A stretch of 61,622 nt of DNA from Candidatus Peregrinibacteria bacterium CG2_30_44_17 (lineage in GTDB: Bacteria > Patescibacteriota > Gracilibacteria > UBA1369 > UBA12470): the NCBI GenBank assembly GCA_001873565.1, contig MNZJ01000037.1:1-61622 (forward strand), given 5' to 3'. Each line of letters begins with the position of its first letter. Position 1 is the stretch's first letter. The translations under genes were made by a program, and so were the position numbers. Below, piece after piece: positions 30,847 to 55,962 of this stretch. The notes below the pieces were generated by a model. It was not told the DNA's origin. It saw nothing but the letters and a program-made list of their open reading frames with translations, and made no database searches.

Positions 30847-30860
30847 GCTTTTATTATATA

Positions 30861-31034
30861 CTCTAATGAGACCTCTACGGAAGTCAATTAACTACTGCAA
30901 AATGATAAATTTGGCTGCAAATCCTTCAAAGCTCCTATCCGTATCTAAACTGATACGCCGTTGTCGCTTCTTGGTATTTTCGCACGAATTTATCGTTTTT
31001 CGCTACGTTACTGACTTCCGCAGAGGTCTCTAAT
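30861..31034. repeat. inverted-repeat-bounded dispersed element, copy 1 (MITE-like)
   Basis: Left GAGACCTCTACGGAAGTCAAT and right end (reverse complement GAGACCTCTGCGGAAGTCAGT) are near-perfect inverted repeats; interior shared with copy 2 at 55682-55890. Confidence 0.75.
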
Positions 31035-31062: not shown

Positions 31063-32256
31063 ATGACTGACGATCAATTCAAAAGCCTGCTTGATAAGGG
31101 TACTGTCGATGTTATTGTGCGTGATGATTTGGAGACCAAGCTCAAGTCTGGCAAGAAACTGCGAATCAAGCTTGGCATAGATCCGTCAGGTGCCGACCTG
31201 CATATAGGTCATATGGTTGTAATCAAAAAACTTAAGGAGTTTCAGGATCTTGGGCATCATATTCTGCTTCTGTTTGGCAATTTCACAGGGCAGATAGGGG
31301 ATCCTACAGGTAAAACGGAGACCAGGAAGCCCAAGACCCAAGAAGAGCTCGAGAAGAATGCCGAGCATTATATTGACCAAGTAAGTAAAATCCTTGATGT
31401 CGATAAGATTGAGGTTGTTTGGAATGCTGATTGGCTTTCTCCACTGACTTTTGCGGATGTTATTAAATTGTCAGCGCATTTCACCGTAGCTCAAATGCTG
31501 GAAAGAGATATGTTTCAAGACAGGATCAAAAACAGCCAGCCTATCTCTATGCATGAGTTCCTATATCCTCTGATGCAGGGATATGACTCTGTTGCATTAA
31601 AAGCTGATGTAGAAATAGGCGGCACTGATCAGACTTTTAATCTGTTGGCTGGACGCACTTTGCAAAAAGCTTACGGGCAAGTGCCACAGAATATCATCAC
31701 TGTTCCTATTCTTGAAGGTCTGGATGGCAAGATCAAGATGGGTAAGAGTGAGGGGAATTATATCGGCGTCAACGAGGCTTCAAATGAGATGTATGGGAAA
31801 GTGATGTCGATTCCTGATAATCTTATCCTGAAATATTTTGAGTTGGCTACCAATGTCACTCTTGAAGAACTCGATTCTTTGAAATCGCAAATAGAATCAG
31901 GTGCAAACCCTAGAGATTTGAAAATGAGGCTTGGGCGTGAGATTGTCGCTTTGTATCACAATGAGTCGGCTGCCAAAGCTGCAGAAGAAGAGTTCGTTAA
32001 TGTTTTCCGCAACAAAGAGTTGCCGGAAGAGATAGAGGAAGTTTGTCTGAGCACCGAATCGTGGAATGTTATCGATCTTATATCTGAGTGTAAGATGGTT
32101 TCGTCTAAGAGTGAAGGTCGTAGGATGATAGATGGAGACGCCGTTAAAATCGATGGAGACAAGGTTTTTTCTATCGAAGACAATGTCACTCTTTCTAAAG
32201 AAGGCAAGCTTATTCAAGTAGGGAAGAGGCGTTTCTTGCTTGTCAAATTGGGTTAG
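31063..32256 (+). CDS. tyrS: tyrosyl-tRNA synthetase
   Basis: LGIDPSGADLHIGHMVVIKKL; GGTDQTFNLLAGR; KMGKSEGNYIGV; C-terminal S4 domain. Confidence 0.96.
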   Translation: MTDDQFKSLLDKGTVDVIVRDDLETKLKSGKKLRIKLGIDPSGADLHIGHMVVIKKLKEFQDLGHHILLLFGNFTGQIGDPTGKTETRKPKTQEELEKNAEHYIDQVSKILDVDKIEVVWNADWLSPLTFADVIKLSAHFTVAQMLERDMFQDRIKNSQPISMHEFLYPLMQGYDSVALKADVEIGGTDQTFNLLAGRTLQKAYGQVPQNIITVPILEGLDGKIKMGKSEGNYIGVNEASNEMYGKVMSIPDNLILKYFELATNVTLEELDSLKSQIESGANPRDLKMRLGREIVALYHNESAAKAAEEEFVNVFRNKELPEEIEEVCLSTESWNVIDLISECKMVSSKSEGRRMIDGDAVKIDGDKVFSIEDNVTLSKEGKLIQVGKRRFLLVKLG

Positions 32257-36648: not shown

Positions 36649-39600
36649 ATGGGAGGTGCGCAAGGTAACAACAATCCGGCGAAAGGGCTTGAGGCAGCTC
36701 CGGAAGCTGCTCACGAAGCTTTGTCTCCTACGCAGGAGATGGCTACCTTGGCGATGGAGGTTCTCGAAGGAAAAAGCTTGCATTCGCCAGCTTCGAAAAA
36801 AATAGATTCTATTAGTCTTTCTGAGGCTGTTGAGTCTCAAGTTGAGAACTTGAAGCATTTGTATCTGGGTGCCATACTGCTACTTACGTACTTAAAGCAC
36901 TCTGGTAAGCTCGGTACTGGATCTTTTTCCTTAAGTACATTCAGGAATTTATCGGTTCCCAGTTCTGATCTGTCTCCTGAGCAGTTCTCAGCTTTCAAAA
37001 AGCTTAGAGAGATGGCTACAGGCAAAGATTCTGTGGTTTCTTCCTTCTGGAATAGCGAAATCATGAGTCATCTCAGTGATGCGGTCTCTACTGTGTCTGT
37101 TGCCACAACCGCTGCTGTCGACGTTATTACCGGGAAAGAAGATCGAGATGTGCCCGATGGAGAAAGAAGTATGTATGATAAAACCAGAGATTTCGCCAAT
37201 GAACATCCTGTTATTGCAGGCACCGTTGCGCTTGCCGGGGCTATGGCTGTTGGATATGGACTTTTTAAGCTTTGCTCTGCAGCGAAAGAGAAGCTTGGCG
37301 GTAAGAGCAGTTCCCCATCGAGTAGTGCGGAAAGTACGGGTGAGTCTGTATGGAAATGGACTAAGCGTCTTGCGCTTATGCTTGGTGGTACGTGGATTGC
37401 AGGACAGATTTTGGGCCTCGAGGAAGTGCAAAAATGGCTAAAGAAAAAAGGTCTCGATGTTAATGCTAATAGATTCAGCAAGGCGCTTGTGCTGTTTGCT
37501 GATTTTAATGTCTTGGAAGGTATAGAGACTCTCAAACGCGGTGTTCGCGATTCCGAAGAAGAGCGGAGGCATACTGATTTCTCCAATGAATTCGGACTTA
37601 ATAATAGTATCAGTGTTTGGGTTTGCGCTGATGAAAACTGTAAGGATTTGCTTGATATGACTGACGACAGTCATACTTATTCGATTGCGGCTCCTGCGGC
37701 GTTGGCAAATATCCCTTTTATTGGTGCTATATTTACTAACGAAGAACAACTCGAGGATGAACGCAAATTGCGCAAAGGTCTCTCCGGTATGCGTTCTCAA
37801 ATCGAAAAAATACCCGGATGGGGAAAAATGAGTATAGATGAAGTATTGAAACAGCTAGCCAAGAGTGGCGCGGTTGCAGCCCCTGAAGGTCCTAGGGCGC
37901 AGAGGGAGATGTCGGATGCCGAAAGGGCTGTAATTGCTAAGCAAGAAGAGGCCCTTGTGAATCAGCCATCTACGCAGTTCGATAGGCTACTTGCCAGTAT
38001 TGATACCAATCAATCTATCTCTCGCGAAGAGAAGATGGAATTGCTCGCAATGATTGGCGGTCCCGAATCGGAGAATTCCCTACTTAGTGATTTGCACTTC
38101 ATGGAAGATGCAATTCCCGGGATGTGGGATACTTGGAAGAGCAAAGCTTTTGATGTTACGGCTGGAGCCGGCAGTTTGTATGGTGAAGGACAGGCTGGAC
38201 AAGCAATGATTCAGGCTTTTGGCCTGGATATAGAAGATAGGGAGGAGATGGCTGATTTGGTTAAGGCGAGAAAAATGCTCGATGAGAGCCTTGGATCAGA
38301 GATGGAAAGAAGTGAACTTGAGATGGTTAGAGGACTTATACTGGAAGCCGAAGGTTTCCGTGACTTTGTCGAAGGCGTAGGGTCTGGCGATAAATTCGAT
38401 GCAGGTGACCTTACTAAATTCCGATCCTATAAGAAAAAATTTACAGGGCCTGATGGAATTTTCAAACAGGTAAAGCTAGCGAGACAAAGAGCTAGTAACA
38501 CTGAATTCATGGATCAACGTCTTGAATTCGGCAAATGGACTGTCGGAGACCAAGGACAAGCTATGTTGGATTTGTACATGTATTCCCTATTCGGATATAC
38601 GTTGGAGGCTTTTGTCTCGGCTGAGTCGACCGATGCCGACAAAGGAGTTGGCCTTGCACTGACTGTCGGTACTATTACCGGCACCTCTGCCGCTTTGTAT
38701 GCCGTTAGGCATCCTATTGTAGCAGCCAAATCTACTGTTCTTCCGTGGAGGGCTGCCGGATGGAGCAAAGCTAAGTTCCACGAGGCCGTACTGAGCAGTA
38801 TGGCTAGCAGGCTTGAAGCCGGTGCGTATACTGCCAAAGAAGCCAAAGACGCTATTAAATTTTGCGAAAAAATAGAGGATACATATAGTCTGGCAAAAAC
38901 TGGCAGTTATCATATGGTTAGCAAGGAGTCCGGAAAGCCGGTACGTCAACTTGCCACCACCCTAAGGGAAAGATTTGATGCGAGAATTGCAAGTGGCGGC
39001 AACGAGTTCGGCAGAGTTGCAGAAGCTGATAGACTTAGAAGGGCTCTTCGGGCTGGCAGCGCTGAGCATGTTGATTTGGTTGTCAGGCAGATTTCTGAAT
39101 ATACCGGTGTTTCCGATGATGTTATCAGACGTTCTGTAGAAATAGAACTTCAAGCAGGCCACATTGATGACGTTGTAGATGCTATGATGGAAGCACGAAG
39201 AGCATCAGAGGCCGCTGATCAAATTGACGATATAAGTCGAGCTGCCGCTGCAAGGCAGCAACTTGCTGCTATTGGTACATACTTCACTAGGAATGCTGCT
39301 GAGGGTACCGAGATGCTTGTCAGAAACAGAGCATTGGTTCAACTGCTTGCAGGTAATGGAGTAGAGGTGTCGTCTGACGTTGCTATGAGGCTTTCCAGAA
39401 CGTCTCCTTCGCTACTTGGCGCTGTTGATGATCCAACTTTGATTGCTGTCGAAATTGAGAAGCTTAGATCTACGATGAAAGTCAGTGATGCTTCTGAGAT
39501 TGCTTCCAAGGCTAACATGGCTATGAAGGCCGAGAGAGCGCTGCTCGTTCTCAATGTCGTTGTTGATATTTTTACGATAGGGATGTCTCTATACAGGATC

Positions 39601-55681: not shown

Positions 55682-55890
55682 CTAATAGAGCCATTCTTCC
55701 AAAGTCAATCAACTACTGCAAAATGGGGAAATCTGCTGCGAATTCTTCAAAGCTCCTCAATGGGAATTTGCTCAGGTTTCGCCACTACCTTATCCGTATC
55801 TAACCTGATGCGCCGTTGTCGCTTTTTAGAATTTTCGCGCAACTTTATCATTTTTCGCTACGTTACTGACCTTTGCAGAGGTCTCTATTA
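55682..55890. repeat. inverted-repeat-bounded dispersed element, copy 2 (MITE-like)
   Basis: Shares GTCAATxAACTACTGCAAAATG, AAAGCTCCT, TATCCGTATCTAA.CTGAT.CGCCGTTGTCGCTT, TTTTTCGCTACGTTACTGAC and GCAGAGGTCTCTA with copy 1; about 35-nt interior insertion. Confidence 0.75.
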
Positions 55891-55892
55891 GA

Positions 55893-55922
55893 AAAAGGGT
55901 CTTATGTAAAAGACCCTTTTTC
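55893..55922. terminator. Rho-independent terminator
   Basis: AAAAAGGGTCTT-atgta-AAAGACCCTTTTT. Confidence 0.8.
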
Positions 55923-55962
55923 ATCCCTACCGTACTTCGCTTTAATCGACTGTACGTAATTA

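What the first reader, a model, noticed from the sequence alone, without database searches (positions are those of the whole stretch)
30861..31034. MITE-like / mobile-promoter element, copy 1, between rluD and tyrS
Seen: a non-coding ~174-bp block with near-perfect inverted ends (GAGACCTCTACGGAAGTCAAT / GAGACCTCTGCGGAAGTCAGT) and TAAT next to both termini. A diverged second copy lies at 55682-55890. The element ends 15 bp before the rluD start codon; on that strand it carries TTGACT in its left arm followed by TAGAGT/TATAAT-like sequence near the junction. Inference: a small mobile element that can supply a promoter, or a structured regulatory element.
Basis: partly seen in the sequence, partly recalled or inferred. 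Interest (0 to 1): 0.72.

Follow-up and report, generated by a model that had tools for sequence, protein, structure and literature searches.

The report
Phylum-wide hairpin-shaped miniature transposon
The stretch between rluD and tyrS is a 163-bp gene-less jumping element, one of about a dozen in this Peregrinibacteria genome, and it belongs to a family of about 162-bp hairpin elements found across its bacterial phylum, whose folded shape has been preserved while its sequence and its ends changed.

Summary
The element is window 30868-31030 (163 bp): 21-bp inverted ends (19/21 match) inside a TAAT/TAAT duplication. The genome holds about a dozen copies, including 55688-55885. Six relatives keep the divergent rluD-tyrS pair without it. 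In a heavily loaded relative, 30 of 46 full copies have an exact 4-bp duplication (shuffled mean 4), and some copies interrupt other copies cleanly. It is a mobile non-autonomous element (MITE). Its ends and YTAR-like target match IS5-group insertion sequences of the same order, but almost no carrier holds such a transposase.

The interior is not an IS remnant. It is a long imperfect hairpin. A covariance model finds it in 25 of 89 genomes of the order and 57 of 382 across the phylum, mostly at about 162 bp, with diverse ends. Pairing is kept by double changes (55 of 56 pairs) around fixed off-pair motifs. One strand, minus in the window, folds consistently better (20/20 and 41/43) and carries the G-U type pairs, so a single-stranded structure (RNA or ssDNA) appears selected. 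This is unusual for a MITE and is absent from Rfam.

The promoter idea is weak and not a family feature.

The parts
30868..31030 (+). element copy 1, 163 bp; + is the orientation of the covariance model, the minus strand is the better-folding one
30864..30867 (.). target duplication TAAT, left
31031..31034 (.). target duplication TAAT, right
30868..30888 (+). left terminal inverted repeat
31010..31030 (-). right terminal inverted repeat
30895..30900 (+). conserved motif CTGCAA (reads TTGCAG on minus)
   Evidence: position counted on the sequence
30913..30921 (+). conserved motif GGCTGCAAA (reads TTTGCAGCC on minus)
   Evidence: position counted
30940..30957 (+). apical hairpin CGTATC / GATACG
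30977..30985 (+). conserved motif TTTTCGCAC opposite GGCTGCAAA
   Evidence: position counted
30998..31006 (+). conserved motif TTTCGCTAC opposite CTGCAA
   Evidence: position counted
55688..55885 (+). element copy 2, 198 bp, insertion near the apex, no clear target duplication
31063..32256 (+). tyrS gene
30860..30887 (-). weak promoter-like match TTGACT-16-TAGAGT, straddling the element end

Best explanation
It is a non-autonomous mobile element (MITE) that inserted into the roughly 49-bp spacer between the divergent genes rluD and tyrS and duplicated TAAT (shown: copies, duplications, empty sites). It is moved in trans, most likely by an IS5-group DDE transposase that acts on the inverted ends and cuts at a YTAR-like 4-bp target (inferred from matching ends and target; no such enzyme was found in most carriers). 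Unlike an ordinary MITE it is not visibly a deleted IS. It belongs to a distinct lineage of about 162-bp elements spread through the phylum that kept one fold, a long imperfect hairpin with fixed off-pair motifs, while ends and stem sequence turned over by compensatory change (shown). The better pairing of one strand, with G-U and purine mismatches tolerated there, indicates that the structure works single-stranded, as RNA or ssDNA (supported, not proven). Its likely role is in the element's own spread or survival, by recognition of the folded strand by the mobilising enzyme or a host protein (inference).
For: Copies and empty sites. Duplications 30/46 vs 4.0 shuffled, target Y-T/A-A/T-R; IS5 target YTAR in PMC10359306. 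IS5-group ISs with the same two end styles, ends up to 16/17 identical and interior unrelated. Covariation: 41 of 56 pairs in the order, 55 of 56 across the phylum. Phylum-wide occurrence. Strand asymmetry: A-C 98 vs G-U 31 on plus, i.e. reversed on minus; 34 vs 10 sequences, p=4e-4, and MFE better on minus in 20/20, 44/46 and 41/43; tRNA control G-U 8, A-C 1.
Against: IS5-group transposase genes are in 4 of 89 order genomes and 1 of 25 tested carriers; no autonomous partner in the richest carrier. Copies share descent, so the strand counts are not independent; the apical helix goes the other way. The phylum alignment was fitted to the model. Many copies outside the order show no clear duplication. 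No gene-orientation bias that would suggest co-transcription.
Confidence: 0.7

Rival explanations
1. Ordinary IS5-type MITE. The covarying stem is a by-product of palindrome upkeep (arm-to-arm conversion or template switching) and of transposase binding to both ends; no single-strand role.
For: Ends and target fit IS5. Both-sided changes far outnumber one-sided ones, as expected if the arms are copied from each other. MITE transcripts commonly fold (PMC10969869).
Against: Fixed off-pair motifs are kept for the whole phylum although conversion would erase them. G-U/A-C asymmetry and consistent strand preference in folding.
Confidence: 0.25
2. Structured RNA gene or regulatory RNA that merely happens to be repetitive, kept because it serves the host.
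For: Covariation and strand-specific folding.
Against: Target duplications, nested insertions and empty sites show that it moves. Locations are not conserved, flanking genes vary, no orientation bias. 32 of 57 phylum carriers aside, 64 of 89 order genomes have none, so hosts do without it.
Confidence: 0.07
3. REP/REPIN-like hairpin moved by a Y1 (HUH) transposase that recognises one strand of a mismatched hairpin.
For: One-strand structure with conserved mismatches resembles what HUH enzymes read (own knowledge).
Against: 4-bp target duplications, which that mechanism does not make; Y1 genes in 11 of 25 carriers and 8 of 25 non-carriers, and none in the richest carrier.
Confidence: 0.04
4. Mobile promoter: the insertion supplies a promoter to rluD.
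For: TTGACT-16-TAGAGT, 9 of 12; the element lies in the promoter region of both genes.
Against: About chance number of matches; box not kept in other copies; the TATAAT is host sequence.
Confidence: 0.08

Closest known systems
IS5-group-related bacterial MITEs (general class reviewed in PMC10969869)
   Same: Under 500 bp, no gene, inverted ends, 4-bp YTAR-like duplication, intergenic, many copies; ends like IS5-group ISs of the same order.
   Different: Interior conserved phylum-wide with covariation and strand preference, interior unrelated to the ISs compared, ends variable; no cognate IS in most carriers.
ERIC (enterobacterial intergenic repeat)
   Same: Short intergenic imperfect palindrome shared by several genera, mobile, no known transposase of its own (own knowledge).
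   Different: ERIC is about 127 bp and enterobacterial (own knowledge); here about 162 bp, 4-bp duplications, spread over a phylum.
REP / REPIN with RAYT (PMC3116915, PMC3733652 as leads)
   Same: Non-autonomous hairpins with conserved mismatches, one strand recognised (own knowledge).
   Different: REPs are 20-40 bp (PMC3733652 abstract); here 162 bp with target duplications and no link to Y1 genes.

Membership tests
MITE | Short (<500 bp) and without a gene for its own transposition | tested here: met
   163 bp; no transposase; open frames not in one conserved frame
MITE | Terminal inverted repeats | tested here: met
   19/21 in the window copy; most full copies 12-14 of 14
MITE | Target-site duplication | tested here: met
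   TAAT/TAAT; 30 of 46 exact in G012 vs 4.0 shuffled
MITE | Multiple copies and empty sites | tested here: met
MITE | Autonomous relative sharing the ends | tested here: inconclusive
   IS5-group ISs with similar ends in own genome, G059, G080, but none in most carriers
IS5-group derivative | 4-bp YTAR target | tested here: met
   Y 0.93, T/A, A/T, R 0.94 at the four positions; YTAR for IS5 in PMC10359306. The window's own TAAT is not YTAR
IS5-group derivative | Interior derived from the IS by deletion | tested here: not met
   blastn of 20 elements against three IS5-group ISs: only the ends match, apart from scattered 12-13-mers
REP/REPIN | Linked Y1 transposase (RAYT) and no target duplication | tested here: not met
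Rfam family | Score over a gathering cut-off | tested here: not met
   only tRNAs in the window; nothing relevant at relaxed E-value
ERIC | ERIC consensus sequence | not tested
   named as a functional analogue from own knowledge

The most novel reading that the evidence does not exclude
A phylum-wide lineage of small mobile elements in Patescibacteria that is defined by a conserved, strand-specific folded single strand (RNA or ssDNA) and not by one transposase: the ends re-evolve to exploit different transposases while the folded core is recognised by a factor not yet known.
Probability: 0.35. Interest if true: 0.82.

Novelty: new variant of a known kind. Interest (0 to 1): 0.64.

Why it matters
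MITEs are usually seen as short-lived deletion products of one IS, with meaningless interiors. Here the interior is the conserved part: one fold kept by compensatory change across much of a bacterial phylum, while the ends differ from genome to genome. If the strand-specific structure is functional, it makes testable how a gene-less element persists in very small genomes that lack its transposase. It also gives a ready covariance model for a repeat class, absent from Rfam, that sits at many contig ends in these assemblies.

Tried and rejected
Autonomous partner in G012: searched paired ends 450-4500 bp apart, and any 14/16 inverted pair with a 4-bp duplication around an ORF; none fits. DDE_Tnp_1 genes in other carriers have unrelated ends, except the G059 IS already named. 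Y1 transposase association: none. Coding peptide (Rickettsia RPE-like): plus-strand frames are open more often than shuffles predict, but in no single frame, as expected of a pyrimidine-rich strand. Rfam: none. Phage and plasmid collections: no match to this copy. The viral-contig scan gave no answer four times, so carriage by viruses is untested. Gene-orientation bias: none significant. Papers on MITEs or structured repeats in CPR bacteria: none relevant in the held library.

Full report
OBSERVATION. The window is a contig of a genome of 1.17 Mb in 51 contigs. The element occupies 30868-31030 with TAAT on both sides. Its ends match at 19 of 21 positions. It folds at -62.4 kcal/mol (plus) and -70.8 (minus), z-scores -9.5 and -10.6.

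MOBILITY. The own genome has ten BLAST matches from about eight places and 12 covariance-model matches. Exact 4-bp duplications flank the window copy (TAAT), C2:51956 (TTTG) and the C24 copy (TTGA). The divergent rluD-tyrS pair is preserved in six relatives with short spacers and no element. Among 46 full copies 30 have an exact 4-bp duplication, against a shuffled mean of 4.0 (maximum 11 in 2000 shuffles), and the target reads Y-T/A-A/T-R. Copies nested in other repeats give contiguous empty sites when the insert and one duplication are removed. The GGAAACCC subfamily (15 copies of 164 bp) averages 95.4% identity, so it spread fairly recently.

WHICH ENZYME. The own genome holds an IS5-group IS (DUF772 + DDE_Tnp_1) with ends GGACTCTCTGAAAAAAG. 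G059 has one with GGAAGCTCTGAAAAAC and a TTAG duplication, and G080 one with GAGGCCTCTGCAAAAG. These are the two end styles of the elements in this order (GGNNCCTCTGAAAAA and GAGACCTCTGCGAAAG), up to 16 of 17 identical at the ends with no shared interior. IS5 targets YTAR (PMC10359306). Mobilisation in trans by IS5-group enzymes is therefore the best guess. Yet such genes are in 4 of 89 genomes of the order and 1 of 25 carriers tested with DUF772, and no autonomous version was found in G012. The enzyme that moved the G012 copies is unknown.

THE CORE. Twenty diverse copies align over 169 columns with fixed motifs CTGCAA, GGCTGCAAA, CTCCTC, CGTATC/GATACG, CTTCGTC, TTTTCGC and TTTCG, while stems and ends vary. 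Of 56 pairs 41 show changes on both sides; 94.4% of cells are paired, against 30-46% when the partner is slid. A covariance model finds copies in 25 of 89 genomes of the order and in 57 of 382 across the phylum, in 50 genera. Most matches are full-length at 158-166 bp, with E down to about 1e-29 outside the order. In 48 such copies 55 of 56 pairs are double-changed. That alignment was fitted to the model, so its counts lean towards the structure, but the slid controls and the order-level MAFFT alignment agree. The ends differ from genome to genome although the core is recognisable. Many of these outside copies lack a clear duplication, so their mobility was not shown one by one.

WHICH STRAND. 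If the stem mattered only as double-stranded DNA, G-T and A-C mismatches should be equally common. On the plus strand the arms have 98 A-C and 31 G-U cells. Counted by sequence, A-C exceeds G-U in 34 and the reverse holds in 10 (p = 4e-4). The excess is significant in the terminal repeats and the inner arms; the apical helix alone goes the other way. The minus strand folds better in 20/20 order copies, 44/46 G012 copies and 41/43 phylum copies, by 10-13 kcal/mol on average. Consensus folds give -83.6 (minus) against -62.4 (plus) in the order set. tRNA acceptor stems of G012 show the sense-strand pattern expected of RNA (G-U 8, A-C 1). On the minus strand the fixed motifs read RCGAAA opposite TTTGCAGY, twice, consistent with a bulged A plus an A-G mismatch, and GACGA opposite GAGGA near the apex, consistent with tandem G-A pairs; this reading was made by eye and is inference. 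Shared ancestry makes the copies non-independent, so I rate single-strand function at about 0.65.

PROMOTER IDEA. One 9/12 match exists, near shuffle expectation. It is not kept in other copies, and the better TATAAT is host sequence outside the element. An effect on rluD or tyrS from the insertion itself remains possible but untested.

LIMITS. E-values of the model are rough. Searches outside the phylum and in viral contigs could not be done. No transcript data were available.

Noticed in passing
L101 1021-2177 (G000:C2 about 37406-38562): Intact-looking IS5-group insertion sequence in the same genome, 315-aa transposase, ends GGACTCTCTGAAAAAAG.
   Followed up: partly
G012 C17:14042-14257, C12:30743-30959; L027: About 202-bp variants whose apical hairpin is replaced or extended by another GC-rich hairpin: the apex looks modular.
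   Followed up: no
L217-L223 (G069, G085, G036, G072, G047, G049, G018): A second, about 122-bp core type with similar ends and apex; four of five folded also prefer the model's minus strand, the fifth agrees once its orientation is taken into account.
   Followed up: partly
G012:C13:52420-53473: Candidate IS with a zinc-ribbon transposase-like ORF and its own ends (GGGATAAGGGAAATTTCGTG), unrelated to the elements.
   Followed up: no
contig ends of G035, G346, G172, G430: Element copies often sit at contig ends, so they probably break these assemblies.
   Followed up: no
window 55688-55925: Copy 2 lies between a glycosyltransferase gene and ssb, has TTCTAATA/TATTAGAA inverted flanks in place of a duplication, and is followed by a terminator-like hairpin (AAAAAGGGTCTT..AAGACCCTTTTT).
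   Followed up: partly
A1 and A2: The plus strand of the elements is stop-free more often than shuffles predict, in varying frames, so ORF callers may run genes through them.
   Followed up: partly
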